This document shows positions 35,901 through 64,000 of a DNA stretch of 64,000 nt, in pieces. Position numbers and translations under genes: made by a program. The DNA lies in assembly GCA_947184155.2 (NCBI GenBank), contig CAMXCT020005135.1, positions 355,657-419,656 on the forward strand, read 5' to 3'. This DNA is from Cladocopium goreaui (Eukaryota; Sar; Dinophyceae; Suessiales; Symbiodiniaceae). Each line of letters begins with the position of its first letter. Position 1 is the stretch's first letter. The notes beneath the pieces are model-generated. The model searched no databases and was not told the DNA's origin. It was given only the letters and a program-made list of their open reading frames with translations.

Positions 35901-35912
35901 TTTCACTTTTGC

Positions 35913-36460
35913 TTAGGATGGCAATGATGGCCCCAATATCCACCCAAAATCATCCACGAGGAAGGTCTGACTGACCGAGGCACTCTGGAAGAGGTGCTCG
36001 CTGGGTGGAGGAATGGAAGTCCAGCTCCCGAGCACGCAAACCTTTCCTGTTTGATGTGGAAGAAGAAAACTAAAAAAACAAAAAGCAATGCCATGCGAAA
36101 ATGTTTGATGAATTCGTTTGGGGTATGTGAAATAGAATGAAAAATTAATTTTAGGATGAAATCAGTTTCACCATGGTATTGATCACCAGTCACGAAGTGA
36201 GCCTCTTCGATGGTTCCCGGAGGCCTGATCAGGAATTGTCTTGCGAATGTGTGAACCAAATTTATCACTGGTTGGTTTTGGTGTTGCAAAAAGTCAACAT
36301 TGAAAATGGAACCATTCCAAGCACTACCTGAAGGGTGGTTGGCAGGTGCATGATTATCCTTTATTTTTTCCTTCAACAAAAAATATGAAAAAACAATATC
36401 TGCCTCACCAAAATTGCAAAAATGGATCAAATTTTCGCATGATTTGTACACCCGACTTGC
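35913..36460 (-). CDS. Three phase-consistent exons of an unidentified gene
   Basis: Exons at 36460-36409, 36327-36172 and 36046-35913. Acceptors are all AG|G (TTCCAG|G, CTTCAG|G, AACAG|G) and donors are GTGAGG and GTGAAA. The phases (1 then 2, twice) close exactly. The peptide runs through SRVYKSCENLIHFCNF, NGSIFNVDFLQHQNQPVINL, RPPGTIEEAHFVTGDQYH and GKVCVLGSWTSIPPPSEHLF, and a stop lies at 35,915-35,913 (a donor shortly before it is also possible). I do not recognise the family; K-V-C-V-L-G-S-W is reminiscent of beta-sandwich carbohydrate-binding modules, but that is weak. Upstream exons are missing from this call. Confidence 0.6.
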
Positions 36461-37601
36461 CTGGAATGAGGCCATTTGTTTCCACTGCCATGGCACTTTG
36501 TGAAACAATTTTCAAAGATGTTCAGGACACATGCACCAATGCCATGTTGCAGTTTTCCGCCAAATACAGATACATGCAGACAAATCAAAATACCAATCAC
36601 ACAGTCACACAGTCACACTCAAATAATTTTTCAATTGACAAGAAACGTGACACCAATTTGTGATGTCATATGAATGGTCGATTTTTGGTGATGTAAGATT
36701 CCCATAACAGACCCAATCCATGACCTTTTGCTCTGACAAACAAAACCGGCGAAAAATCAGGTTGGAAATGAATTGCGTGCTAAACAAGTCGCAGCAAAAC
36801 CACATCCAAAAATCAACAGTTGAAACAAATAATGATTGCAAAACAATGTTTCGGGATCATCGGAGCTAACACAATCCAATTTTTTCGTGGGATCACAAAG
36901 ATTTCATGATGCCGTTCCAAGATGATGTGTTTATCCAAATTGATTCATAAAATGTGAACAACATTGTCATCAAGACATGTAAAATTTGAATGGCAAACCA
37001 CTGATACTTTTGTTAACCAGGATATTTCTGCAAAGACAGTTGGTCGGTCACAATTCGTTAAATGTATACAGGTTTTCGATTTCTGCCTTCAATTTGCGAA
37101 GACTAATTTGGGTTATATTCGGGTTTAGTGTGATTGGGATTGGGTCCGATGGTTTTTGTTGATGTGTTTCATGTGGATTCGCAACCACACAAATTCTGCA
37201 TCATGATTCTCAACAATAGATGGGTTTGTTCCCAAACCGCTGGTGCCAAAAAAACACGTGAAAATGGTTTCGACTCAACACGGGTCTTTCGTCACTGTTT
37301 TCATTTTTTTTTGCCGTATAGTTTCTTACCATCAAACAAAGTTTAATTCGCAAATTTCCCAATTGCGGATGAAAGTCCATGGTCACCCTTGTAATCGTGT
37401 CAGCCACGGAAGTAGCTACGGCAGCTGGCAGCAGGAAAAAGTAGATCACGGTAACAATCCGTGCGCGGGTGATGCAACCGACGTGCGCGAATCATTGCAT
37501 TTTTGCGGGTATGGTCATGGTTGCCCCAAGGGTCGCCAAGAATGGTCTGTGTTTCCGCGGGTGGGCCTCGATTTGGAAGAATTGTGGACAAAAACCTGCA
37601 G

Positions 37602-38037: not shown

Positions 38038-38121
38038 TCGTCTAACTTGCAGTTGGCCACGTTGAAGCATGTAAACTCAAGCAATGCACTCTGTTTTCAA
38101 CTGGGGCAGCGCAGACTGGCT
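38038..38121 (-). repeat. Split direct repeat B2 (3' end of element)
   Basis: 84 bp, identical to B1; marks the 3' end of the element. A 66-bp spacer separates it from A2. Confidence 0.95.
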
Positions 38122-38187
38122 AGGCTGCGGGTTGGCCTAGGAAGGTGAAAAGGGATGGGAAAGAGTCCAGCATTTGCTGGGGGTGGG

Positions 38188-38333
38188 CGCTTTTCAACTT
38201 CTTAAAATTAACGGCGGACCCACCGCTCCCACCCTCTTGAGAAAGAAAAGACTTCAGTCATTGAACGTGACCCGAAATCCAAGATTTCTTAACTGCATTG
38301 TGAGACAATTCGAAGACTAAAGTCTGCTTCATC
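38188..38333 (-). repeat. Split direct repeat A2
   Basis: 146 bp; the internal copy of the 5' terminal repeat A1, directly abutting B1. Confidence 0.95.
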
Positions 38334-38415
38334 GTCTAACTTGCAGTTGGCCACGTTGAAGCATGTAAACTCAAGCAATGCACTCTGTTTTCAACTGGGG
38401 CAGCGCAGACTGGCT
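38332..38415 (-). repeat. Split direct repeat B1
   Basis: 84 bp, identical to B2. It begins 7 bp after the stop codon of the RT gene and overlaps A2 by two bases (TC), forming the B1A2 junction. Confidence 0.95.
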
Positions 38416-38422
38416 TCCCCCA

Positions 38423-40111
38423 TCAACTCTGTGTTGCCGCAGTGAGGAAATTCTGTAAGTTGTTGAACCATGCCACTGCAGCACTTGACTCATCCATGCA
38501 AGGAGGCAGCAAAGGGTGTGATGCATTGCGAGATGGATAGTCACTGACATTCGCTTCTGTCGGCACTCGCGCGTACCAGGTACAAAGATTGTTCGAAGCC
38601 TCACGCTCAAGATGGTATCTCATCAGGGCAGAGGCATGAGAGCTCAAGCAAGCCCCTTTGATCAATGAAAACCTGGCACTGTCGTTGTCACCAAAACAAA
38701 TTTGTAAACCATCCTTCATTTTGTCAGACCAGAAATCCAACGCCAGAATTGATGCAGCCAACTCCAACTCATAAATGATCGTTTGCTTGACATCCGATCC
38801 AAAAAGCTGGCACACCGACGACTGTAAAGGGAATCCAAACCAGCCCACGCACTCACAAGATTCATTGAAGATAGCTGCACCTATGCCACCCTCCTTAAGC
38901 TCCGGCTCGTAAGCCGCATCCGAGAACACAAACCATTGTTGCACCGCCTTTGCAGAGACGATGCGGGGAATGCCAAGGGATAACCTTTTCATCATCACTT
39001 GAAGTCCAAAGGCAAGCTCGGGAGAAAGCTTTGCAGACCTGCTGTAGGCATGTTCCGACAACTGCTTCAGCACCAAAAGGCCTAGGCGGCCGTGTAGAAA
39101 GGAATCTGCAAAGCCCAGTTTGCCACGCAAGATAAGTGCATCCTGCTTACATAATTCTCCAGCTTGCAAAGTTGACACAATCAGTTCTTGCAGATCTTGG
39201 ATTCTTTGCTCTGTGTTGCGCACTGCAAGCACCCTTTCACCTGAGCTCGCCAAATCAAATTGTACCCCAAGCGCTTTGCAAACTGTCCCAAAGGCTGTGG
39301 CTTTTTTGCCATCCATATCAAACCTCCAACCTGTCAACATGAAAACCAGCTCCATGGAGTTTTTTGCAGACTCAACGCTTCCTGGTAGCGACGCCAGAAT
39401 GTAATCGTCGTAAAAGTTTGTCGTCAGCAAGAATAACTGACGTGTGCAAATCGTGTACAGCATCCTGGCCAGTCTAAGGAAGCTGTACACGCTATGCGTC
39501 GCTCCAAACGGCAAAGTGACAAGCTGGTATGTTTCAGGTCGATCTGTTTCGCAATTGTAAATGCAGAAGTATGAGAAGCGCAAATGATCTTCTCTGATCG
39601 GTACCTGCCTGTACGCACTTTTGAGGTCGTACGTCTTTGCGACCAGCGCACTGGCCTTTGACTCATCATTGCACCTTCTGAAGAATTCTCTGATGACCGC
39701 TGCAAATGTATCCACCATATGCAAATCAACCTTGTTGTGTGTTGATGCAGTGTCATCGATACCAGAGATCGAAAAATCGTCGATCATCCTTGTCTTTGCC
39801 TTTTGAACCAGCGGAAACCTTCGTGACACCACTCCACCTTCCGGAATGGAGTCCAGGGGCCCAATGGCCCAGCCTCGCTTCACTTCCTCCCTTGTTTCGC
39901 AAAGGAGCTGCCGATCCACCTCCAAGTCACCTGAGCTCTTACAAACAGCCAGTACTGCTTTGTTTCTCATTGGCGCCTCCTTCAGCAGCTGTGACATCGT
40001 TAGCATGCAAGGCTTGTAGAGCTCCTCAAAGACGTCACTCCGGGGTATTTCACCTGCCAAAGGTGATCCATGTCGTAGCAAGTCCAGCACGCCAGAATCT
40101 TCGTACTGCAT
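38423..40111 (-). CDS. Reverse transcriptase with RNase H
   Basis: 562 residues from the ATG at 40,111; a non-ATG extension overlaps the methyltransferase gene, so frameshifting cannot be excluded. RT motif A is TYDLKSAYRQVPI (about 160-172), motif B lies near TLPFGATHSVYSF, and the catalytic F-Y-D-D is at 233-236. RNase H residues are Asp in VFSDAAYE (398), Glu in IIYELELA (448), Asp in GDNDSA (475/477) and Asp in NVSDYPSR (524). All catalytic residues are intact. The arrangement fits DIRS-group polymerases, which lack a copia/gypsy-type integrase. It ends 7 bp before repeat B1. Confidence 0.9.
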   Translation of the reverse strand: MQYEDSGVLDLLRHGSPLAGEIPRSDVFEELYKPCMLTMSQLLKEAPMRNKAVLAVCKSSGDLEVDRQLLCETREEVKRGWAIGPLDSIPEGGVVSRRFPLVQKAKTRMIDDFSISGIDDTASTHNKVDLHMVDTFAAVIREFFRRCNDESKASALVAKTYDLKSAYRQVPIREDHLRFSYFCIYNCETDRPETYQLVTLPFGATHSVYSFLRLARMLYTICTRQLFLLTTNFYDDYILASLPGSVESAKNSMELVFMLTGWRFDMDGKKATAFGTVCKALGVQFDLASSGERVLAVRNTEQRIQDLQELIVSTLQAGELCKQDALILRGKLGFADSFLHGRLGLLVLKQLSEHAYSRSAKLSPELAFGLQVMMKRLSLGIPRIVSAKAVQQWFVFSDAAYEPELKEGGIGAAIFNESCECVGWFGFPLQSSVCQLFGSDVKQTIIYELELAASILALDFWSDKMKDGLQICFGDNDSARFSLIKGACLSSHASALMRYHLEREASNNLCTWYARVPTEANVSDYPSRNASHPLLPPCMDESSAAVAWFNNLQNFLTAATQS

Positions 40112-40131
40112 TTCCGCTAGGATCTCACCAG

Positions 40132-41265
40132 TTAATAAGATCCTCTTGCCACAGGTGGCTTGCCTGACATGTGGAGGACGCAAGGCCGCGTCTGACTGTT
40201 CTGCCAACACTCATCACTATCCACACGCAAAGACTCACCTGCAACCCCCATGTCAGAGTCTGCAGCGAAACATCCACGTAAAAAGCGTGAATGCTTTGGC
40301 ACAAGGACTGCTTGTTGTTGTTCAGTCCGCAGCTGAATTGAAGTTGCGAGCTTTCCCATAAGACCACAGGGAATGTCAGCAGGCTCTTTGGCGTAGAAGA
40401 CGGCTGTCTGTTGAAAGTCGGGCACCAAATGTGGAACTTTGGCACCTCGTGGCTGGCGACCTGCTGCAATCTGTGCATTCTTTGCTGAGAGTAAAGGATG
40501 GTCGACCATATCGTGTAAACAGTTTGGTCGCAATTGCACACCTTTGTTTGCAGCCACTTGCAACACCACTTGTACCAAAGCTATGCAGAGCTTTCGAGGG
40601 TACTGGGATTCTTCTGCTGTTGCCCATATCTTTTGGCCTTGTGCGTTTGTTGTGAATCCCCAACCAAGGTGTTTGTGAGTGCGGTCGCAAACAACGTCCA
40701 TCTGAGAAATTTCAGGAAAGGTGGCAATGATCCTTGTCCACTTGTCCCGCATTGATCCATACATGCATGCCTGAAAATCTGTAGCAAAAAGTGAATGAGC
40801 TCGCAAGAGATCCAGCACAAAGGGTATTACCCAAAGATAAGAGCCACGTGGATTCTCCATGGTGGCCAAAATACCTCGTCTCAAGCACAATGCAAAAAGA
40901 TGGCAAGTGTACCTGAACAGCTCATTTGCAATGTCAACCCTCCTGCGATCTACTGGTCCAAGCGTAGGTAATCCCATTGGATGTTCCAAAGACCTCAAAG
41001 GTTGCGGTGCAGCTGTCAGTTCGGGTCGGGGTACCTCCCGTGCCCTGCTCGTCGTTCCACAAACTGGGGCAAAGTGCACCCATAGCAAAAGAGGTGAAGA
41101 AAGCCACTCTTCTAAGAGCTCCCTGTCAGCTGCTTGCATCAAATCTAACTGATAGATTGTACTTCTTGAATTTTGCTTTCCAAACTTGTCGACTGCAATG
41201 CCACCAAGCCCATACTGCTTAGCCACTGACGTGAGGACAGCTCCACCAGCAAACACTTCAATCAT
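40132..41265 (-). CDS. DNA-methyltransferase-like protein of the element
   Basis: 377 residues from the ATG at 41,265. It has the order of motifs of a cytosine-5 methyltransferase: an AdoMet loop MIEVFAGGAVLTSVAK (residues 1-16), an acidic residue in GIAVDK (26), a Cys loop FAPVCGTTSRAR (Cys about 69), ENPRGSYLW (about 137-145, like the E-N-P/V motif) and a late YPRKLCIALVQVV like motif X. The Cys follows P-V instead of the usual P, so activity is uncertain. DIRS/PAT elements often carry a Dam-like adenine methyltransferase, and dinoflagellate retroelements with cytosine methyltransferases are known, but this diverged form in a recombinase element is not one I recognise. It might self-methylate element DNA (inference). 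Confidence 0.6.
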   Translation of the reverse strand: MIEVFAGGAVLTSVAKQYGLGGIAVDKFGKQNSRSTIYQLDLMQAADRELLEEWLSSPLLLWVHFAPVCGTTSRAREVPRPELTAAPQPLRSLEHPMGLPTLGPVDRRRVDIANELFRYTCHLFALCLRRGILATMENPRGSYLWVIPFVLDLLRAHSLFATDFQACMYGSMRDKWTRIIATFPEISQMDVVCDRTHKHLGWGFTTNAQGQKIWATAEESQYPRKLCIALVQVVLQVAANKGVQLRPNCLHDMVDHPLLSAKNAQIAAGRQPRGAKVPHLVPDFQQTAVFYAKEPADIPCGLMGKLATSIQLRTEQQQAVLVPKHSRFLRGCFAADSDMGVAGESLRVDSDECWQNSQTRPCVLHMSGKPPVARGSY

Positions 41266-41319
41266 GAATAACTGCTCAATGTGGAGTCCTTTGAAGTCCT
41301 TCTGCACATCAGGACCTAG

Positions 41320-42516
41320 TCACTTGTGCTGTTGCAACGAATGCGGTTGTTGGCACCGCGGTTCTGCACAAACATGCAATCCTTTTGGGCACCGATCCCC
41401 TGGTTTCACCGTTGATGACTGAGCGCAGCCAGCAGCTGTATTGAAAGCAAAACAAATTGGCTCATTTGCAGCAGTCTTGTAGTATTTTCCCCGTAGTTCT
41501 TGGGGCATAGGAGGTGCCTTTCCTTTGCCCCCTGCCTTTCCTTTTGATTTGCCACCATGCGACTTTCCACCCGAAGCCTGGTAAGGTGCAGGCCTGGATG
41601 GTGCTGCAGCTGTGCTCTGTATTGGTTTTGCCAAAGGGGCAAGGTACAACATGATTGCAGGGTCCAGCTTCAATGCTAGCAACGCCTCCCCAAGCGGGAA
41701 TGTTCCATCTGCTGCCTCACGTGTTGTTACACCCAACGTTGCAAGCCTTGCCCAAGCAGCTTTGTCACAACTCACGACTTGTGACAAGTTTGCACGACTG
41801 TAACCTGGTGGAACTTCGCGGTGTAGTGATTCAAATAGAAATGTCACCCAGGCATTGTGTTGCTGAAACGACATCACTCGTGCAAATGCTAAGGCGACGG
41901 CCCTTCTGCTCAATGCATAGTGCAGCTTTATCTCAGAATCAGTCTGGCAAGTCAACTTGTCATCCTGTTTAAGGATCAATGACCCTTTCTCCAACGTGAG
42001 CTCACGGGCTTTTGGAGTACCCTGAACCTCCATACTTCGTGAAATGCAAATTGCCGGCTCCAGCCATTTGACATTGTTGCTATCAAAAATTGCACAACAC
42101 TTGTCCAGCAAACTGTGGGACGGTTCAAGCTCACCACTGATTTCAAGTCCTCTGAGATCCTGACGGAGCCTTTCCATTCGCTGGGTACGTTCAGCGAAAG
42201 CAACTTTTCTGGGTTGCGTTTCATCACTCTGATCAATCTGTTGTCTCAACGTTGCAACCAGGTATGTATGAGCCTCAAAACCAAGCCTCTTCAAAGCTGC
42301 AGTCTCTGCTAAGGTCGGTGCACGGCCCAACGTATTCTGCAAGAAATCTGTCACTTCTTGGTTTTGTATTGGCTGTCCAGGCTGTCCAATCACAAATGCC
42401 AGCTTTGAAAGGCAGTCTACCTGAACTCCAGCTAAGGTTGTGACGAAACCTTGTCCCATGCCTAATCTTGCACATCTCTCCTCAAAATGCGCTGTGCTAT
42501 CAAGCAGGGAAGTCAT
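41320..42516 (-). CDS. Gag-like protein with C-terminal Cys/His zinc finger
   Basis: 398 residues from the ATG at 42,516, chosen because the upstream open extension is a hydrophobic run unlike Gag. The body is mainly helical. It is followed by an Ala/Pro and Gly/Lys-rich nucleic-acid-binding linker (GGKSHGGKSKGKAGGKGKAP), then a Cys/His cluster with C at about 355, 364, 376, 383 and 388 and H at 392 (PICFAFNTAAGCA; RCPKGLHVCAEPRCQQPH). This CCCH-like finger recurs in dinoflagellate element proteins (family knowledge). Likely role: packaging element RNA. The stop lies 54 bp before the next ATG. Confidence 0.65.
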   Translation of the reverse strand: MTSLLDSTAHFEERCARLGMGQGFVTTLAGVQVDCLSKLAFVIGQPGQPIQNQEVTDFLQNTLGRAPTLAETAALKRLGFEAHTYLVATLRQQIDQSDETQPRKVAFAERTQRMERLRQDLRGLEISGELEPSHSLLDKCCAIFDSNNVKWLEPAICISRSMEVQGTPKARELTLEKGSLILKQDDKLTCQTDSEIKLHYALSRRAVALAFARVMSFQQHNAWVTFLFESLHREVPPGYSRANLSQVVSCDKAAWARLATLGVTTREAADGTFPLGEALLALKLDPAIMLYLAPLAKPIQSTAAAPSRPAPYQASGGKSHGGKSKGKAGGKGKAPPMPQELRGKYYKTAANEPICFAFNTAAGCAQSSTVKPGDRCPKGLHVCAEPRCQQPHSLQQHK

Positions 42517-42849
42517 GTTCCTAACAAACGCGCAACGAAGCAGTGAAAAGAAAATCAAAACACATGTCATGCAACATGAAATCATCACAAAAAGCAACTG
42601 AAGTTCATGCAACTGCCGGTCAAACGTTTTTTAAATTAAAGAATGGGAAATCTTTGCAACTTTCTGCGGATTTGTTCTTTCTTTACTTGCAGCTTTCTGC
42701 ATGGGGAGCTTTCTCCACCTTGAGCCGCATTCAAATGAACATGAAATGATTTGCGGCTTTCTGCATGAACTTGTTGCAGCTTTCTGCCAACTGAGTGCCT
42801 TTGCACAATTCAACTCAAACCACTGCGGCAATCAAACTTTTTCTTCCAC
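42517..42849 (-). other. Spacer between recombinase and Gag genes with repeated motif
   Basis: Four to five copies of GCAGAAAGCYGCAA-like sequence (seen on the plus strand as tgcagctttctgc variants near 42,647, 42,688, 42,751 and 42,775) lie in the only sizeable non-coding gap of the element. A regulatory or internal-promoter role is possible but unproven. A non-ATG open extension of the Gag gene covers part of it and is hydrophobic, so it is probably not translated. Confidence 0.5.
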
Positions 42850-45204
42850 TCAGGCGGCCTGTCGCTTGGCTCTGCCCAATGCATTGTCAATCGCTCCGGT
42901 GAGCTGAGAAATTGTTCTGATTCTATTTGAGTCCTTTGGAAAACATTTCAAACACTTCGGCCAGCGCACTTTGATCTCTCTTGGCATCAACTGAAAATTC
43001 GCAGTGAGCTGAGCGCCACACGCGGCAACCTTCTGGCCATCTTTGACTCGGTGCATAATCGCACTCTTTCGGTGCTTGTAAAACTGCTGGCCCTCTGGCA
43101 CCCTGTCAACGTATGCATGGGCATCAGGCTGCTTCACATTGGCCTCATCGCTTGAGGACGTAGTGGTGTCACTTCCGCTCTCGCTGCCAGACGAGCTGTC
43201 CAGTTCAATGACACCAGTGTCCACAACCCCGAGGTCAAAAAGTGAGATGCTTGAAGCAGCTGCACAAATCTGAGCCTCATCAAGCTGCTCTTCCTTGATG
43301 CTGTCCATGTCACCTGCGACATTCACTTCCTCCATGGCTGTCTCAACAACATCCCTTGGCGCCTCCAAAACAGGCACAGGAGGGAAAGGAGTCATCGGCT
43401 GTTGTCCGACTACTCCAGGTTTTGGAGTACGAGCATATGGCGTGGCATATGGGTTTGGTGCCGTTGCCTCATCATCCAGGCCCAAACCAATCCGAACACG
43501 ATGAAGCATCATGCTCAGTTTTCTCAATGCTCGTGTCTGCAAGTACCTGCTATAGACCACCTCCGACCCTTGGAGTGCAGATGCATGGTGGCCCAAAACG
43601 GCACGCACCTCCTTGTCCAGCCCTGCCTTTGCTGCCCAGACCAGCAATGTAGTTTTCATTGAATGTGCCTTGAAGCTTTCACATCCATCTGTGCCCCTCA
43701 GGAGCAATCGCAACCATTCGGCAGCCTCCTGCGTCGTCAGAGGCCTAGCACCAAAAGATCCTCCCAGGCGCGGCGCCGGCAGCAGTGGACCCAATGGCAC
43801 ACGAAACAGATCCAGACCTGCCATCCTGTACACATCCATGAAAGTTTTGACCCATTCATCATGCGTCACACCCATCCATGGCACCACCAAAGGAAGGTAC
43901 TGTTCTCTCCTTGCTCCAATTGCCGATGTCTTGTGCTCAGCTGTATATAATGTAAGAAAGCCGTTCCTGCCTTCTTCCACAACCACATGATGGATGTACC
44001 TCAGGTCAGACCACCTTGCACGCCCATAAACGCAAATCAGCATGGCTCCAGCTCCCAACCTGTCAGTAAGGCATCCAGAGCCCTCCAAAATCTCATGAAG
44101 GCGTTGCAAGTTGCACAATTCAAGTGGTGCAGCTTGTCGAGTCGGACCCTTCTGCAGTTTCTCAATTGCAGCAAATCCCAAAAGCCTTCTTGAGTGCAGC
44201 ACCACATCAGACTCTCTCAACTCCAGGGTAAACTTCATGAATCTCACTGTTTCCAAAAAGGCAGAGGCATTTGTAAAACCACGTTCGTTTTCACGTCTCA
44301 AATCACGCAGCCAATGAAAGAAAGCCCAAACATCTGTTTCTGAAAATGGCAGGGGACTCACAAGAACTTGTTGTGCATCACTGCGCAGCTCTGCATGCCA
44401 CTTGAAATACCTCCGTAAGCTCGAGGCCCTCTTCAATAGAGTCTGTGGACTCTCGATTCCGAAACTTGCCTTTAAAGTCTCGTAGGCGCAGGCTCCGGAT
44501 GCATCTTTTTGCATATCCCTTGCCAAGATCTCTCCAACTCCGGTTGCATACCAGCTGCATGACAACAACTCCAACCATTGACCGCAAGCAAGTTCCAACA
44601 GCCGGTTTTTGTTTTCGAAATATTCCAAATCCTGTACATGTTTGACCACCTTGTCATAACATGAATCTAAAGTCTGAGTTCTAGCACCTTCAAGCGTCTC
44701 AGCTGCCGCGATCACTTGTTCCATCAAACCACTATCAGGTTCAGGCAGTTGATTCAAAGGAAGCTCCAATAAATTTGAATGCCCAAAAATTTCAGCAAAA
44801 ACTCCAGTCTCCCAAGGCAGCAAAAGATTTGAAGGCCGCTGTGCAAACTGTGAGTGATTTGCAGCTACTCCAAGCTGCCACTGTCCATGTCCAACAGTCG
44901 GCTGAGGTCCAAGCTGTGTCGCAACTGCAGCAACCTCCGAGTCACGCGCCAAACTAGGGCTTGGGCACTCAGACGCAGCCTGCTCTTTCTCAAGAGTTCC
45001 GCCGTTGTCCACTGACCAGATCACATCAGGTGACTCATGTCCGATCTGTGAAGCTTCATTGTACATGTGAGAACTGAGGGGCAAATCACTTGAAAAAGAA
45101 TCACCAACGTGTTCATCCATGGAGACATGTAACCAGTCACTAAACTGCTCCAAGCCAGCATCTTGTCCTGACTCTAAAGGTCCAGACCATCCAGCATCAT
45201 CCAT
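42850..45204 (-). CDS. Tyrosine recombinase (integrase) of the element
   Basis: Predicted to integrate a circular DNA copy of the element. From the first ATG it is 784 residues; a non-ATG extension of nine codons is open upstream. After about 200 residues of variable N-terminus and a helical core-binding region, the catalytic domain shows Arg in YGRARWSDLRYI (about 395), Lys in AEHKTS (425), His in KAHSMKTTLLVWAAKAGL (514), His in VLGHHAS (539/540) and the nucleophile Tyr in YSRYLQ (554). The second conserved Arg of the family (H-x-x-R) is Lys here (H-S-M-K). The C-terminus carries a Ser/acidic linker and a small Cys-containing module (ACGAQLTANF; WPKCLKCFP). Its position as first gene is unusual. 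Confidence 0.85.
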   Translation of the reverse strand: MDDAGWSGPLESGQDAGLEQFSDWLHVSMDEHVGDSFSSDLPLSSHMYNEASQIGHESPDVIWSVDNGGTLEKEQAASECPSPSLARDSEVAAVATQLGPQPTVGHGQWQLGVAANHSQFAQRPSNLLLPWETGVFAEIFGHSNLLELPLNQLPEPDSGLMEQVIAAAETLEGARTQTLDSCYDKVVKHVQDLEYFENKNRLLELACGQWLELLSCSWYATGVGEILARDMQKDASGACAYETLKASFGIESPQTLLKRASSLRRYFKWHAELRSDAQQVLVSPLPFSETDVWAFFHWLRDLRRENERGFTNASAFLETVRFMKFTLELRESDVVLHSRRLLGFAAIEKLQKGPTRQAAPLELCNLQRLHEILEGSGCLTDRLGAGAMLICVYGRARWSDLRYIHHVVVEEGRNGFLTLYTAEHKTSAIGARREQYLPLVVPWMGVTHDEWVKTFMDVYRMAGLDLFRVPLGPLLPAPRLGGSFGARPLTTQEAAEWLRLLLRGTDGCESFKAHSMKTTLLVWAAKAGLDKEVRAVLGHHASALQGSEVVYSRYLQTRALRKLSMMLHRVRIGLGLDDEATAPNPYATPYARTPKPGVVGQQPMTPFPPVPVLEAPRDVVETAMEEVNVAGDMDSIKEEQLDEAQICAAASSISLFDLGVVDTGVIELDSSSGSESGSDTTTSSSDEANVKQPDAHAYVDRVPEGQQFYKHRKSAIMHRVKDGQKVAACGAQLTANFQLMPREIKVRWPKCLKCFPKDSNRIRTISQLTGAIDNALGRAKRQAA

Positions 45205-45221
45205 GGCATGCCCCCCAAAGT

Positions 45222-45367
45222 CGCTTTTCAACTTCTTAAAATTAACGGCGGACCCACCGCTCCCACCCTCTTGAGAAAGAAAAGACTTCAGTCATTGAAC
45301 GTGACCCGAAATCCAAGATTTCTTAACTGCATTGTGAGATAATTCGAAGACTAAAGTCTGCTTCATC
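45222..45367 (-). repeat. Split direct repeat A1 (5' end of element)
   Basis: 146 bp, matching A2 except for one base (T here, C in A2, plus strand, near 45,339). The first gene's ATG lies 18 bp inside the element from this repeat. A small minus-strand reading frame from outside the element runs into it, suggesting the insertion broke an older frame. Confidence 0.95.
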
Positions 45368-46049
45368 ATCTGGATCGCTGACCTCGCACTGTTCTGCATC
45401 TCTATACCTTCTCAATCTCTCTGACTGGGTCTCTACATGCATCGACTCATCAGAGTCAGGGTCAGGGACTTCAGGAGTTCTGAAGATTTCTGCAAAAGTT
45501 CGCAGCAAATCCATGGTCATCTCAACTCGCTGAAGCTCCAAAAGTTTCAAGATGCACTTGTGGTCTCCTCATGGCTGTTTGAAAGGAGATTGCGTTCATC
45601 TCTTCCCAGATTGTATGTCGGTGAATTGTCATCTTCTGAAAGTTCATATTCTCATCGCTCAATGAGTTCAAAGTTTTCTCTCGATCTTGTAAGCTTGCAG
45701 TTGGCAGGTGATGCAAGCATGATTCAAGCCATCGTTGCATCTGTTGGTATCTCATTGCAGCACCTATGTTTCCAGTCTCTGTTGCGCGGCGTAGACGTCC
45801 ACGCACTCGCACCAGTGTCCATGTGACTAGGCCTTCAAGGCTTGTATATTCATGAGTCACCTGTGGTCCAATGAACGCGGTCAGAGTGTCAGGAAACAAC
45901 GGTACCTGAGCAATGTTGGGGTTCTTGTCAGAGCGCATCATGTACTGGGGAGGACCACCTTTGGGAGTCCAAAATCTATATACATTTCCAACCCCAAAAA
46001 CGGGCATCAAACAAATCGAACAATTTAATATGTCGCCCGGACTCCGCAA
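45368..46049 (-). CDS. Two open segments upstream of the element, unidentified
   Basis: On the minus strand, 46049-45522 is open (includes MRYQQMQRWLESCLHHLPTA and GPQVTHEYTSLEGLVTW), and a second frame from 45,550 continues with DLLRTFAEIFRTPEV and PDPDSDESMHVETQ, then crosses into A1 and stops. They may be pieces of one frameshifted older retroelement gene into which the recombinase element inserted. The peptide start TPKGGPPQYMMRS resembles TPRSGPPQYHEYP encoded near 53,390. No function assigned. Confidence 0.35.
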
Positions 46050-46054
46050 GAAAG

Positions 46055-46250
46055 CGCAAGATGCGCAAGATGCTGTTTTGAAATTTTTGAAGTTTTCAGT
46101 TTCAGTCGCGCTGACAAGGCGTTTGAAATTTTTGAGGTTTTTGAGGTTTTCAGTTTACTATGCAATTTACAAGATGAACCGCGGCTTTGAGATTTTTGAG
46201 GTTTTCAGTTTCAATCGCACTGACAAGGTGTTTGAGATTTTTTTGTCCAA
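46055..46250. repeat. Degenerate repeat rich in ttttgaggttttcag
   Basis: About four copies of gaaatttttgaggttttcag, with two or three copies of a following cgctgacaaggcg-type string. It is non-coding. Confidence 0.7.
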
Positions 46251-53366: not shown

Positions 53367-54211
53367 AAAGCCGTGCTAGTTTGCACTCCAAGAAGTGGTC
53401 CTCCCCAGTACCATGAGTATCCAATCAAAAGCATAGTCCATGTTGTCAGGAAGGCAACTCCAAACCATAAACCATCTGAAGATGTGGATCCAGTCACCAC
53501 ATCCTTGCAGTTGCAAAGCCATTGCGCCCTGCAAGTTAATCATAGCCAGATGGCCGGCTCTCATCCTGATAGATCGATGATCTTCTCCTTCATTCATATC
53601 TTTCGTGGGGCTGCTCTTATGGCTGATGTCGTCAATGGTGCGCAGCATGTCATTGGCTTGATCCCTCTCATCGTCATTTGCAGCTGTGATGAAGTTCATG
53701 AAATCTGCCAGTAGAGCTCGACGTTGATTGTAAGTTTGAGCACGTGTGGTGTCTCTCTTGCATTGCATCTTCAAAACGTCGATTGCACCTCTCAAACATC
53801 CAGCCAATCATTCCCTCGGCTGAGAATGCAGGAAATCGTCAGTGTCCTCTGTGGCATTGGTGGCGATGCTTGCTGTGTCAGCGTCATCAGATCCATCTGC
53901 AAAATCAAAATTGGGCTGTCTGGTGTGCCCTTTCTGGCCTTCGTGCACTGTGACATCCAGAGTAAGTAAGCACCAAGAAGTCCAATCTATGCTGCTGTGA
54001 ACACGTACGGAATGTCCATTGTGTCGGTTGACATGGCGTCACACCCTTGGAGCTGGAGTGTGAGGCGCCTATCAAAACTCAAAGTTGTGAATTGCGACCT
54101 GAAGTTGATGCTGACTGCTGTGGAAAGTGCCTGTCGTCCTGGGTCGTCTGATCCTACCAGTTGATTTTGCACTGTGCTCCAAAGTCCAAAGAGGGACATC
54201 AGTGATTCCAC
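53367..54211 (-). pseudogene. Copia-type polyprotein C-terminus, broken
   Basis: On the minus strand, ESLMSLFGLWSTVQNQLVG (54,211 downwards) matches LESLMFLFGLW encoded at 58.1 kb just after a copia RNase H, so this is the tail of the same kind of polyprotein. It continues through SFDRRLTLQLQGCDAM, stops and shifts frame. It then resumes as NFDFADGSDDADTASIAT, an in-frame TGA, RALLADFMNFITAANDDERD, and a hydrophobic C-terminal part (RWFMVWSCLPDNMDYAFDWI). Stops and frame changes mark it as dead. Confidence 0.6.
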
Positions 54212-54545
54212 GGTGCCTAGAAATCTGACCCTCTTGGCCCAACGTAAACCAAGAAAGGTTCAATATGCTCCCAACATGGCCACCGTGAATGAACATAGAG
54301 AGGGTAGACGCGGGGCGCGGTGCCTAGAAATCTGACCCTCTTGGCCGAACGTAAACCAAGAAAGGCCCATATGTACCCAACCTGACACCGTGAATGAACA
54401 TAGAGAGGATAGACCGCGGTGCCTAGAAATCTGACCCTCTTGGCCCAACGTAAACCAAGAAAGATGCACCCAACATGGCCACCATAAATAGAAAGGGTAG
54501 ACGGGACGCGGTGCAACCAAGAAAGGACCAAAATGCACCCAACAT
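54212..54545. repeat. ~100-bp tandem repeat, about 3.5 copies
   Basis: Copies begin cggtgcctagaaatctgacc at about 54,211, 54,318 and 54,417, each followed by aacgtaaaccaagaaag and an acatagagagg-type string; a fourth partial copy starts near 54,510. It abuts the copia fragment and probably truncated it. Confidence 0.88.
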
Positions 54546-54552
54546 GGCCACC

Positions 54553-54775
54553 TAAAAACTACTACTGCGACTACAACTACAACTACAACTACAACTACTA
54601 CGACTACTTGTACTACTACTACTGCTACTACCACTACTACTGCTGCTGCTACTACTACTGCGACTACAACTACAACTACAACTACAACTACAACTACTAC
54701 GACTACTTGTACTACTACTACTGCTACTACCACTACTACTGCTGCTGCTACTACTACTACTACTGCTACTACTAC

Positions 54776-54835
<60 letters not shown>

Positions 54836-54840
54836 CACTA
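54553..54840. repeat. CTA/ACT/CAA trinucleotide array with ~95-bp internal duplication
   Basis: Triplet repeats interrupted in a fixed order (gactacttgtactac, then ccactactactgctgctgc) that occurs twice, showing duplication of a whole block. Valine- or serine-rich peptides here are artefacts. Confidence 0.9.
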
Positions 54841-56036
54841 CCACCTACCACCTACCACCTACCACCTACTACCTACTACCTACTACCTACTACCTACTAC
54901 CTACTACCTACTACCTACTACCTACTACCTACCTACTACCTACTACCTACTACCTACTACCTACTACCTACTACCTACTACCTACTACCTACTACCTACT
55001 ACCTACTACCTACTACCTACTAACTACTAACTACTAACTACTACCTACTACCTACTCTACTACTAACTCCTAACTCCTAACTCCTAACTCCTAACTCTCC
55101 TAACTCCCTAACTCCTAACTCCTAACTCCTAACTCCTAACTCCTAAACTCCTAACTCCTAACTCCTAACTCCTAACTCCTTAACTCCTAACTCCTAACTG
55201 CTAACTGCTAACTGCTAACTGCTAACTGCTAACTGCTAACTGCTAACTGCTAACTGCTAACTGCTAACTGCTAACTGCTAACTGCTAACTGCTAACTGCT
55301 AACTGCTAACTGCTAACTGCTACCTGCTACCTGCTACCTGCTACCTGCTACCTGCTACCTGCTACCTGCTACCTGCTACCTGCTACCTGCTACCTGCTAC
55401 CTGCTACCTGCTACCTGCTACCTGCTACCTGCTACCTGCTACCTGCTACCTGCTACCTGCTACCTGCTCCCTGCTACCTGCTACCTGCTACCTGCTACCT
55501 GCTACCTGCTACCTGCTACCTGCTACCTGCTACCTGCTACCTGCTACCTGCTACCTGCTACCTGCTACCTGCTACCTGCTACCTGCTACCTGCTACCTGC
55601 TACCTGCTACCTGCTACCTGCTACCTACTACCTACTACCTACTACCTACTACCTACTACCTGCTACCTGCTACCTGCTACCTGCTACCTACTACCTACTA
55701 CCTACTACCTACTACCTACTACCTACTACCTACTACCTACTACCTACTACCTACTACCTGCTACCTGCTACCTGCTACCTGCTACCTGCTACCTGCTACC
55801 TGCTACCTGCTACCTGCTACCTGCTACCTGCTACCTGCTACCTACTACCCTACCTACTACCTACTACCTACTACCTACTACCTACCTACTACCTACTACC
55901 TACTACCTACTACCTACTACCTACCTACTACCTACTACCTACTACCTACTACCTACTACCTACTACCTACTACCTACTACCTACTACCTACTACCTACTA
56001 CCTACTACCTACTACCTACTACCTACTACCTACTAC

Positions 56037-56075
<39 letters not shown>
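54841..56075. repeat. 1.2-kb heptamer array with blocks of variant units
   Basis: A strict 7-bp period is kept while the unit changes in sharp blocks: cacctac/tacctac (54,841-55,020), taactac (about 55,020-55,045), taactcc with a few slips (about 55,060-55,195), taactgc (about 55,196-55,320), tacctgc (about 55,321-55,620), then alternating tacctac and tacctgc blocks to 56,040, ending in TAC triplets. Confidence 0.93.
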
Positions 56076-56077
<2 letters not shown>

Positions 56078-56787
56078 GTCAGATAGGAGGATGATCATTC
56101 GAATTCATCCCAAACACTTGGATCAGCTTTGCAAGTTGCTTCATTTGTCAAAATTTTTGCAAAAGAGATCTCCTGGCCACAGCGAAATTGAAACTCCTGA
56201 CACCACTGAAGAGTTGAACCAACATGATGCTTCAGTGTATCGATCCTGCATTGGGATCCTCCCGTACTTGTCTCCAGATTTGCCGCAATGCCAATACGTG
56301 ATCAGATATCTTTCAACATGTGCATTGAGACCCACTCACAAAGCTATGGTGGTCTTGAAGCACCTGGTTGGCTACATAGCAGGTCACTCTGACCAATATG
56401 TTTCTTTGAAATGGAAGGGCATGCACTCAGGTTTGTTGCGCGACAAAGAATGTGAAGAACCTGTTCTGGAAATCTTCAGTGACGCAGACTGGGCTGCAGA
56501 CAGAAACACACGCAGATCTGTTTCTGGCAGTGCAATCTTCTATGGTGGATGCCTTGTCTACTCGTCTTCAAAGACTCAGAAGATAGTGTCATTGTCGAGC
56601 GGAATCTGAAACATATGCTGCCGCTTCAGCTGTCATGGATGCCATTCTCATCAGAACTATTCTTTGTTGGTTGCTCCAAGTCCGCATTCTCATGTATTTG
56701 TACTTGGATTCATCTGCAGCGCGTGGAGTCTTGTCACGTCGAGGTGTTGGAAGACTCAGGCATTTGAGCTGCAGGGTACTTTGGCTC

Positions 56788-62248: not shown

Positions 62249-64000
62249 TCACCTGAGGGCAAGTAATGCGAGCATTCGCACAAAGAATCTGGCAAATTTC
62301 CTGGAGTATTTCTCTGACAACTGAAAGTCAGAAAAGTTGAATGATGCGTGGAAATCACAAGCACAATGAAAACGCTTCTCAAGACGTTGACTAAGCTCCT
62401 CAGAACTTGACATGATCCTGAACGCTTTCTTGATGGGTAATCCTGGCAGTCCTTCAATTCCCATTGCACAAGCATGGACAACAGACCTGAATGGAATTCT
62501 GGCCTGAACAAAGGCTTGCAGCTTCGGATGAGTCCAATACCTGTTGGAATTTGGCAATTCAAAAGACATAGACAACTCGGGATGTCTTTCTACTAACCGA
62601 TCCAACAACTTTTCACAAGCGGCTAAAAGTTCGAAAAACTTTCGCTCATGCTCTGGGACTCTTTTCCCACCCGAAAAATTCTGCAATGGAGATCCACCTG
62701 TGCACGGCAATGACATGTGAACGTGACAGAACAAATGCACCTCTCCCAGCTCTCGATCAGAGGCTGATCTGGTCATCTTCAACTCCTCCATCACCTGGTT
62801 CACAAGATCTGCAACATGATTCTGTGTAGCTATCTTCTCAAGATTTCCATGAACTCCAACATAACAAGCACGGCTCTCAGCGCATGCAGCTGACAAGACA
62901 CTGGCTTTGCTGCAGGCTAGCTCAACAAAAAGACCTACCCCCCTTTCACTCTTGAAATGGGTCACATCAGCTTCTGAAGAACTTGAACCTGAAATTGCAG
63001 ACAAAACACTGGCCGTTGCTCCACCTCGAGCAGCTGCATTTGCAGTTGCTGCTGACGCTGTTGACGATGTCAACAACCTGAACAACCTCCGATTCGCTCG
63101 CATCGGAAGCTCTCCACTGCCATGACATGCTATGCAGGCTTCCATACGACGCTGGGGCGGTCTCCCTGATGTCTCAGAAGGCTCTGGCTGGGCCTCACTG
63201 GCCGGTGCCTTTGCAACTGGGGTCCTTGAAATCATAGACATACTGTACCCCGATGAAGGGCCAATTGTCTCAACTTCCAGTGCTCCTCCTGGGCCAACTC
63301 TGAATGGTCTATTGGGCGGCTCGCCCACATGCGACGCTGCTTTCGCTTCAGGGCTCTTTGGAGTAACCAAATCCACAGCTGGTGCTGCCTTTGCACCTGG
63401 ACTCGCCTTAGGCGATGTAGGCTCTCCAGATTTCGCCTTTGGAGGCGTCTTGGGTGGCGTCTTTGGCGCACTTGAAACTCTTCTTGGAGCTGGCGGCGGT
63501 GGTGGTACCTGAGGTGGAGCCGGGGGCGCTGGCGGTGGTGGTAGAGGGCCCTGGGCTGGAGAGATGGGTGGTGCCTGTGGTGGCTGTGGCCCTTGCGGAA
63601 CCCACCCCTTCGGCGGATGTGGAGGCGGCTTTGGACCCATCGCCACTGCCGCATTGCTGCTGGCCGGAAACTGGCCGCTCCTCTTCGGTGGCGTCTGAGG
63701 GGGACCCATCCCAGTCCTCTGACGAGCTCTTGGAGGGCTACCTGCGGCTGCTGGGGCCTCCTCGGACCAACCGTGGCCTCTCAGCCTCTTGTTGTGGATA
63801 CGTAGTGACTCCTGGGTCAATCCAACCTGTGAAATCGAATCACCCGGGGCAACCTCATCGCCCACAGTGGAGTCTGGCTGGTGCTGTCCTCTTGGCGTCA
63901 AAGTCACACGCCCATGAGTAAGGCTCACCCTTCGCTCCATCTCAGGGCACTGAGAGATGATATGGCCTTTTTCTCCACAATGACCACACTTCAGACCCTT
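62249..64000 (-). CDS. Gag-type zinc-knuckle, proline-rich protein with methyltransferase-like C-terminus (partial)
   Basis: The frame enters from the right edge, so its start is outside the window. It opens with a retroviral-type zinc knuckle C-x2-C-x4-H-x4-C (LKCGHCGEKGHIISQCPE, 63,994-63,941), then about 250 residues rich in Pro and Lys (PPPPAPPAPPQVPPPPPAPR). The C-terminal third is folded: LFVELACSKASVLS and RACYVGVHGNLEK look like AdoMet-binding motifs, followed by HMSLPCTGGSPLQN (Pro-Cys) and SFELPNSNRYW (E-L-P where E-N-P is usual), then CAMGIEGLPGLPIKKAFRI. It ends at 62,249 without protease, integrase or polymerase, so the element is deleted or this is a separate module. Confidence 0.6.
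   Translation of the reverse strand, partial: KGLKCGHCGEKGHIISQCPEMERRVSLTHGRVTLTPRGQHQPDSTVGDEVAPGDSISQVGLTQESLRIHNKRLRGHGWSEEAPAAAGSPPRARQRTGMGPPQTPPKRSGQFPASSNAAVAMGPKPPPHPPKGWVPQGPQPPQAPPISPAQGPLPPPPAPPAPPQVPPPPPAPRRVSSAPKTPPKTPPKAKSGEPTSPKASPGAKAAPAVDLVTPKSPEAKAASHVGEPPNRPFRVGPGGALEVETIGPSSGYSMSMISRTPVAKAPASEAQPEPSETSGRPPQRRMEACIACHGSGELPMRANRRLFRLLTSSTASAATANAAARGGATASVLSAISGSSSSEADVTHFKSERGVGLFVELACSKASVLSAACAESRACYVGVHGNLEKIATQNHVADLVNQVMEELKMTRSASDRELGEVHLFCHVHMSLPCTGGSPLQNFSGGKRVPEHERKFFELLAACEKLLDRLVERHPELSMSFELPNSNRYWTHPKLQAFVQARIPFRSVVHACAMGIEGLPGLPIKKAFRIMSSSEELSQRLEKRFHCACDFHASFNFSDFQLSEKYSRKFARFFVRMLALLALR
63947..63988 (-). other. CCHC zinc knuckle coding segment
   Basis: C-G-H-C-G-E-K-G-H-I-I-S-Q-C, exactly C-x2-C-x4-H-x4-C, in frame with the downstream proline-rich protein. 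Family knowledge: nucleic-acid-binding knuckle of Gag proteins. Confidence 0.9.

What the first reader, a model, noticed from the sequence alone, without database searches (positions are those of the whole stretch)
38038..45367. Young split-direct-repeat retrotransposon with recombinase-first gene order
The element has the A1 - genes - B1A2 - B2 layout of PAT/Ngaro elements, but its genes run recombinase, Gag-like, methyltransferase-like, RT/RNase H. In described DIRS-group elements Gag comes first and the recombinase last. All frames are intact, non-overlapping from ATG starts, and repeats differ at one base in 230, so it may still be active. This is my best candidate for an undescribed system.
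Basis: partly seen in the sequence, partly recalled or inferred. Interest (0 to 1): 0.92.

Follow-up and report, generated by a model that had tools for sequence, protein, structure and literature searches.

The report
Recombinase-first retrotransposon with leaky-stop Gag-Pol
A jumping element in what is probably a dinoflagellate genome carries its DNA-joining enzyme first instead of last, seems to make its copying enzyme by ribosomes passing a stop signal, and holds a DNA methyltransferase that the usual family searches miss; this copy is damaged, but many relatives exist.

Summary
Window 38040-45367 (minus strand, 7,328 bp) is one A1-genes-B1A2-B2 element, inserted without target duplication into a dispersed repeat; 7 of 9 fetched host-repeat relatives show the empty site. 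Nine further copies and four other families at 27-53% RT identity have the same order: recombinase, Gag, methyltransferase, RT/RNase H. The recombinase belongs to the element.

Corrections. Methyltransferase and RT/RNase H are one Pol ORF in relatives; this copy lacks 214 nt and its Pol frame is broken. Gag and Pol share a frame, separated by one UGA (UGA-CUAG in 10 of 10 close copies; UGA in 5 of 5 families): readthrough is likely, not shown. The methyltransferase has a C5-cytosine fold missed by Pfam.

The recombinase is Cre-like, with HxxK for HxxR. AAAG-loop hairpins lie between recombinase and Gag.

The order is a circular permutation of the canonical one. Shuffled recombinase/Pol order with a DNMT was reported in Symbiodinium in 2018, so I file a new variant. 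No tree with reference elements could be built.

The parts
38040..45367 (-). whole element, 7,328 bp, no target-site duplication
   Evidence: empty site in 7 of 9 fetched host-repeat relatives; terminal and internal junctions
45222..45367 (-). repeat A1 (5' end), 146 bp
   Evidence: 1 mismatch to A2
42850..45204 (-). tyrosine recombinase (YR) ORF, 784 aa, stop UGA
   Evidence: Foldseek: Cre 1pvr E 1.4e-6, prob 1.00, TM-score 0.56 by target length, 0.27 by query length; R397, K425, H514, K517, H540, Y551 invariant in 6 of 6 sequences from 5 families; no Pfam match for this protein
42656..42806 (-). row of short hairpins with AAAG loop between YR and Gag ORFs
   Evidence: 4 perfect plus 2 imperfect here; 5 or more perfect ones in each of the 9 other copies
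41320..42516 (-). Gag-like ORF from the conserved start (398 aa; upstream ATG at 42585), Cys/His-rich C-terminus, stop UGA
   Evidence: 79 homologs; start like 42516 in 63 of 78, end within 8 aa of HxxxxH in 72 of 78
41316..41322 (-). UGA-CUAG at the Gag/Pol junction, proposed readthrough site
   Evidence: UGACUAGG in 10 of 10 close copies, Pol in the same frame
40132..41319 (-). Pol, first fragment: C5-methyltransferase-like domain (homology 40204-41265) then out-of-frame tail
40112..40203 (-). shortened MT-RT linker: 92 nt here, 303-306 nt in the 9 other loci measured; breaks the Pol frame
38423..40210 (-). Pol, second fragment: reverse transcriptase and RNase H (ATG at 40111)
   Evidence: PF00078 E 3.8e-4, below its cut-off; D162 and D235-D236 invariant; RNase H D-E-D-D by eye in the 7 of 9 rows that reach it
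38334..38415 (-). repeat B1, 82 bp
38188..38333 (-). repeat A2, 146 bp; internal junction TTAGAC|GATGAAG
38040..38121 (-). repeat B2 (3' end), 82 bp, identical to B1
45368..46049 (-). 5' flank: dispersed host repeat that was hit (continues from 38039 downwards)

Best explanation
It is a damaged copy of a tyrosine-recombinase retrotransposon family with split direct repeats, probably of a dinoflagellate, with the layout A1-YR-Gag-UGA-Pol(C5-MT, RT, RNase H)-B1-A2-B2. Shown here: layout, order, insertion without target duplication, conservation across copies and families, broken Pol in this copy; fold classes rest on predicted models. Inferred: YR is translated apart from Gag; some ribosomes read through the Gag UGA to make Gag-Pol; RT copies the RNA and the repeats allow a full circle joined at B|A; the methyltransferase domain may methylate the new DNA; YR inserts the circle at short, poorly matched sites. 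The order equals the canonical gag-pol-YR order read from another point of the circle, so the likely change in evolution was a shift of the A/B junction from the YR-gag border to the pol-YR border. This copy either lost Pol after insertion or was moved by other copies; which one was not settled.
For: Order and A repeats in 10 of 10 copies (window, C2479, C494, C2146, C6137, C252, C335, C535, C6143, C202; C1986, a duplicate of the C535 3' part, not counted); same order in 4 further families (L042, L043; L055, L056). Empty site; a nested relative sits in a host copy with exact host continuity and no duplication. YR like Cre, MT like C5-MTases. Purifying selection: C2479 vs C494 dN/dS YR .062/.851, MT .026/.621, RT .044/.983; Gag window vs C494 .033/1.105. 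MT and RT in one protein in 15 of 42 MT homologs. Open frame >=950 aa at 33 of 47 near-full RT matches (from residue <=3 to >=530; list of 80 matches, 77 of 3,516 candidates scored); the window is the only one of the 47 under 600. Gag UGA in frame with Pol in 5 of 5 families. Among the 6 subfamily-A copies the 18 codons after the stop differ at codon positions 1/2/3 by 0.030.248. Two natural in-frame Gag-MT ORFs have Trp exactly at the stop (P0163, P0125). A1=A2 in C335, C6137, C252.
Against: No RNA or protein data for readthrough; reinitiation at the Met 18 codons later is not excluded. The stop-Met interval is less clearly coding than Gag: changed codons are 39 synonymous and 30 nonsynonymous within subfamily A, 11 and 16 within B, 50 and 124 between them, against 64 and 5 for the last 18 Gag codons within A. 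RT is matched only below Pfam's cut-off; YR and MT match no fitting Pfam family. Models are of middling confidence (mean pLDDT MT 77, YR 65), and Foldseek TM-scores by query length are low (MT 0.25-0.30 for the best matches, YR up to 0.27). No tree with reference DIRS, PAT, Ngaro or VIPER elements. With the window's B, no B was found in C6137, C252 and C202, and the second B only in part in C2479 and C335. In C535 the YR gene is internally rearranged. B was not seen in L056, whose stretch ends early.
Confidence: 0.85

Rival explanations
1. Pol is made not by readthrough but by reinitiation at its own Met, or from a separate trans-spliced RNA; the UGA is an ordinary stop.
For: A Met lies 18 codons after the stop in 10 of 10 close copies; 23 of 42 MT homologs are called from that Met, though gene callers do that by construction; many nonsynonymous changes in the interval.
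Against: Frame kept in 5 of 5 families, stop always UGA, Pol ORF opens directly behind the stop; third-position bias within subfamily A; Trp at the stop site in P0163 and P0125.
Confidence: 0.22
2. It is simply one of the two SymbioDIRS-Dnmt3 structures published in 2018, so the whole is already known.
For: Same repeat layout, DNMT and RT in one Pol ORF, separate YR ORF, shuffled YR/Pol order (PMC5890265).
Against: That DNMT is recognised by PF00145 and falls in Dnmt3; here PF00145 matches 0 of 30 MT proteins at E<=1, and none of the 125 listed PF00145 places (123 of 2,685 candidates scored) coincides with one of the 80 listed RT places; three contigs are shared, with places over 75 kb apart (compared by eye). 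Figure 1e and the supplements could not be seen.
Confidence: 0.25
3. Composite: YR gene of a neighbouring or nested element.
Against: Empty site spans YR to RT as one insertion; same order in 10 copies and 5 families.
Confidence: 0.01
4. UGA is a sense codon (Trp) in this genome, so Gag-Pol is one plain ORF.
For: Trp at the site in P0163 and P0125.
Against: YR ends with UGA in 10 of 10 copies; Pol ends with UGA in 6 of the 7 copies with a whole Pol ORF; 72 of 78 Gag homologs end near the site, though gene callers assume the standard code.
Confidence: 0.02

Closest known systems
SymbioDIRS-Dnmt3 (de Mendoza et al. 2018, PMC5890265; passages and sections 6, 7 read)
   Same: dinoflagellate host, A-coding-B-A-B repeats, cytosine MT with RT in Pol, separate YR ORF, YR/Pol order shuffled between two structures
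   Different: their DNMT is Pfam-recognisable and in the Dnmt3 clade; ours is not recognised. Readthrough, HxxK and hairpins are not in the parts I read. Figures and supplements not seen
PAT-like elements (PMC4157794, passages)
   Same: split direct repeats, RT/RNase H, YR, an MT domain, zinc finger in Pat1 Gag
   Different: order gag-pol-MT-YR (partly recalled), adenine-type MT (PMC3783388, passages), internal repeats elsewhere in the nematode form
Ngaro (PMC8547959, passages)
   Same: A1-ORFs-B1A2B2, Gag, RT/RNase H, YR
   Different: gag first, YR last, HxxR; no MT (PMC4157794, passages)
VIPER/TATE (PMC6681497, passages and section 6)
   Same: split direct repeats; YR perhaps not last (Gag ORF1, RT ORF3; YR as ORF2 is my inference)
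   Different: Gag first, kinetoplastids; no MT (PMC4157794, passages)
Readthrough gammaretroviruses such as MLV (recalled, no call)
   Same: Gag and Pol in one frame split by a single stop; structured RNA just before Gag
   Different: integrase instead of YR, LTRs, UAG and a pseudoknot

Membership tests
DIRS order (YR retrotransposons) | reverse transcriptase plus RNase H | tested here: met
   PF00078 E 3.8e-4 and in 7 further proteins, all below its cut-off; catalytic residues conserved; RNase H by eye
DIRS order (YR retrotransposons) | tyrosine recombinase instead of DDE integrase | tested here: met
   Cre-like model, conserved R/K/H/Y; no integrase family in the scans of its ORFs and relatives
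DIRS order (YR retrotransposons) | insertion without target-site duplication | tested here: met
PAT-like | split direct repeats A1..B1A2B2 | tested here: met
PAT-like | adenine-type methyltransferase after RNase H | tested here: not met
   C5-like model, N-terminal to RT; no Dam family at E<=1 in 30 of 30
PAT-like | gag first, YR downstream of pol | tested here: not met
   YR first in 10 of 10 copies
PAT-like | RT and YR group with PAT in trees | not testable with these tools
   no reference eukaryotic element sequences on hand
Ngaro | no methyltransferase; gag-RT/RH-YR; HxxR | tested here: not met
   MT present, order differs, HxxK in 6 of 6 sequences from 5 families and 28 of 29 rows of the homolog alignment (P0024 has Glu)
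VIPER-like | no methyltransferase | tested here: not met
SymbioDIRS-Dnmt3 | A-coding-B-A-B, MT and RT in one Pol ORF, separate YR ORF | tested here: met
   (Pol whole in 4 of 10 close copies)
SymbioDIRS-Dnmt3 | MT recognisable as DNMT by PF00145 | tested here: not met
   0 of 30 MT proteins at E<=1; 0 of 2 Pol proteins of L055, L056; no overlap of listed places
SymbioDIRS-Dnmt3 | MT in the Dnmt3 clade | tested here: inconclusive
   structural Z M.HhaI 12.8, DNMT1 12.0, DNMT3A up to 11.5: classes not separated
SymbioDIRS-Dnmt3 | YR ORF before Pol (one of two structures) | tested here: inconclusive
   YR first here; the paper's text says shuffled, its figure was not available

The most novel reading that the evidence does not exclude
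A separate superfamily of YR retrotransposons, numerous in dinoflagellates, defined by a circularly permuted order (YR-gag-pol), UGA readthrough between Gag and Pol (no YR retroelement with readthrough turned up in paper searches, whose hits I saw mostly as listings), a divergent C5-methyltransferase at the N-terminus of Pol that Pfam misses, a recombinase with Lys where the second catalytic Arg is expected, and, in this family, a tandem-hairpin signal before Gag that acts like a retroviral packaging signal.
Probability: 0.45. Interest if true: 0.78.

Novelty: new variant of a known kind. Interest (0 to 1): 0.6.

Why it matters
If right, it shows that gene order in these elements can be rotated around their circular intermediate, which is indirect evidence for the circle itself. 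It would bring retrovirus-like stop-codon readthrough into a group where my paper searches found none, and it would mean that elements counted as 'DIRS without DNMT' in dinoflagellates may carry a cytosine methyltransferase under selection that family searches do not see, which bears on how these genomes are methylated.

Tried and rejected
YR from a neighbouring element: rejected. Flanks as a host gene: the flank is a dispersed repeat; two ORFs near the element (45525-46154, 35906-36511) match no Pfam family. UGA as sense codon: rejected. Sequence searches against solved structures, YR and RT as single proteins, YR and MT as alignments, gave nothing relevant (best E 0.15). Pfam by sequence for YR and MT: nothing fitting; one YR relative had a weak DUF3504 match, E 0.019. 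Viral contigs with YR (single and alignment) and RT, prokaryote genomes with MT: no relative. Hairpins: column-wise covariation is weak (1 pair changed on both sides, in 2 of 260 cells; 131 of 500 shuffles reach the covariation score, 2 of 500 the 93.1% paired cells), because stems hardly vary and MAFFT shifts one hairpin in two rows; the case rests on one loop with different stems (GTGC/GCAC, GCAG/CTGC, GGAG/CTCC, GGGG/CCCC) and on 4 of the window's 9 such hairpins lying in 264 bp. None was found in L042 and L043; L055 and L056 were not tested. One search misplaced the Gag end in 4 rows by one codon; one search replaces its Gag part. A search for copies sharing the 214-nt deletion did not complete. 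Paper searches: 11, 33, 37, 64, 65, 66, 70, 127, 128; one of the two hits, PMC8226300, was looked at by passages and names readthrough and DIRS only apart.
Full report
Source. The window is G000:C5131:355657-419656 of an unnamed 1.17 Gb assembly. Four YR homologs are named Durusdinium trenchii, so a dinoflagellate is likely; two others bear 'Skav' tags, which I recall as Fugacium kawagutii.

Observation. The repeats are real: A (146 bp) twice with one mismatch, B (82 bp) twice without any, in the order A1 ... B1-A2 ... B2 on the minus strand. The ORFs run recombinase, Gag-like, methyltransferase-like, RT/RNase H.

Boundaries. The 5' flank is a dispersed repeat (40 scored of 746 candidates). 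In nine fetched relatives of it, the flanks of the element are contiguous: in 7 of 9 between 45368 and 38039, extrapolating over at most 13 unaligned bases (L050 and L051 look like the same locus twice), in 2 of 9 the right flank aligns only from base 108 and is 1 nt off by extrapolation. So 38040-45367 went in as one piece with no target duplication. A relative nested in the RT gene of the C335 copy shows the same clean insertion at base level. Ten of ten 5' ends have A[AT] just before GATGAAG or GGTGAAG.

Other copies. The B1A2B2 stretch has 27 matches in the genome. I fetched ten places besides the window; one, C1986, repeats the 3' part of C535 and is not counted, leaving ten copies with the window. 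All ten have A1, YR, Gag, MT, RT and A2 in this order. C535 has a rearranged YR. Four copies carry long insertions (C335, C535, C6143, C202). B was matched in 6 of 10 with the window's B, its second copy only in part in C2479 and C335; C6143 has its own identical 88-bp pair; in C6137, C252 and C202 none was found and none sought otherwise.

Other families. Two of the insertions are distant relatives (L042: RT 30%, MT 34%, Gag 29%; L043: RT 27%, MT 31%, Gag 29%) with their own A and B repeats, 99-100% identical, and the same order. Two more families, chosen by me from the RT search list at 53% and 35% identity (L055, L056), again have the same order; L055 has the full repeat set, in L056 only A was seen because the stretch ends early. 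So 4 of 4 other families examined agree; elements with another order were not searched for as such. In database proteins, one gene model has YR then Gag (P0119) and another the end of YR then Gag (P0211).

One Pol. In 15 of 42 MT homologs MT and RT are in one protein. In C2479, C494, C6137 and C252 the ORF directly behind the Gag stop is 1,036-1,046 aa; the other six close copies have a broken Pol; it is 1,032, 1,076 and 1,114 aa in L043, L055 and L056, and broken in L042. Of 47 near-full RT matches in the genome (residue <=3 to >=530), 33 lie in an open frame of 950 aa or more, 13 in 600-949, and only the window in less than 600 (the 80 listed matches are a lower bound and include near-identical ones). 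Here the MT-RT linker is 92 nt instead of 303-306.

Gag and Pol. The stop of Gag is UGA followed by CUAGG in 10 of 10 close copies, with Pol in the same frame. UGA is followed by CAG, CUU, UAU and CAA in the other four families, again in frame. Within subfamily A (6 copies) the 18 codons between stop and Met differ at codon positions 1/2/3 by 0.030 and .248; within subfamily B (4 copies) by .074.037 and .176; between them by .167.194 and .324. Changed codons are 39 synonymous and 30 nonsynonymous within A, 11 and 16 within B, 50 and 124 between; the last 18 Gag codons within A have 64 and 5. So the interval keeps its frame and a third-position bias within A, but varies more than Gag. Two database proteins run through the site with Trp where the UGA stands (P0163, P0125), and 72 of 78 Gag homologs end within 8 aa of the last HxxxxH, as here. 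UGA-CUAG as a leaky context is recalled; the one paper found with that phrase concerns readthrough in fucosidosis (listing only). Readthrough is the best reading, not shown.

Hairpins. Between YR and Gag, hairpins with the loop AAAG and different stems recur in 10 of 10 copies; many of the invariant alignment columns fall in them. Covariation within columns is weak, and two distant families lack them. A packaging or initiation signal is a guess.

Mechanism. The canonical order gag-pol-YR and this YR-gag-pol are the same order on a circle; only the A/B junction has moved. DIRS-group models use a circular cDNA inserted by the recombinase without target duplication (PMC3266345, passages), which fits the junctions here. 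In nematode PAT and Kangaroo the internal repeats also sit elsewhere (PMC4157794, passages).

Known or new. de Mendoza et al. 2018 reported Symbiodinium DIRS-like elements with A-coding-B-A-B repeats, a DNMT in Pol and shuffled YR/Pol order (PMC5890265; sections 6 and 7 read; figures and supplements not seen). That takes away the claim of an undescribed order. Not found in the parts read or in the hits of searches: readthrough in YR elements, or a Pfam-invisible C5-methyltransferase in them. The library holds only open papers.

Noticed in passing
window 54263-56606: C-rich simple repeat (GC skew -0.507 in 54001-56000) giving spurious long ORFs.
   Followed up: no
window 62252-64000, minus: 583-aa ORF running off the window with a weak zinc-knuckle match (PF00098, E 0.0033, below cut-off), possibly an LTR-element gag.
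   Followed up: partly
window 45940-46049: About 110 bp at the outer end of the flank query recurs at 16 listed places with 96-100% identity, apart from the rest of the host repeat.
   Followed up: no
L044 276-8384 (C6143): Insertion in the RT of one copy: 227-bp identical direct repeats around a 2,389-aa ORF with a zinc knuckle (above cut-off) and a weak RVT_2 match (E 0.0019, below cut-off), perhaps copia-like.
   Followed up: partly
L035/L036 (C535) and L041 (C1986): Two contigs hold the same 3' part of one element copy with the same match profile: assembly duplicate or segmental duplication.
   Followed up: no
genome G000: 125 listed places match DNA_methylase PF00145, many with identical scores, which recalls the published DNMT-bearing retrotransposons of Symbiodinium.
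   Followed up: no
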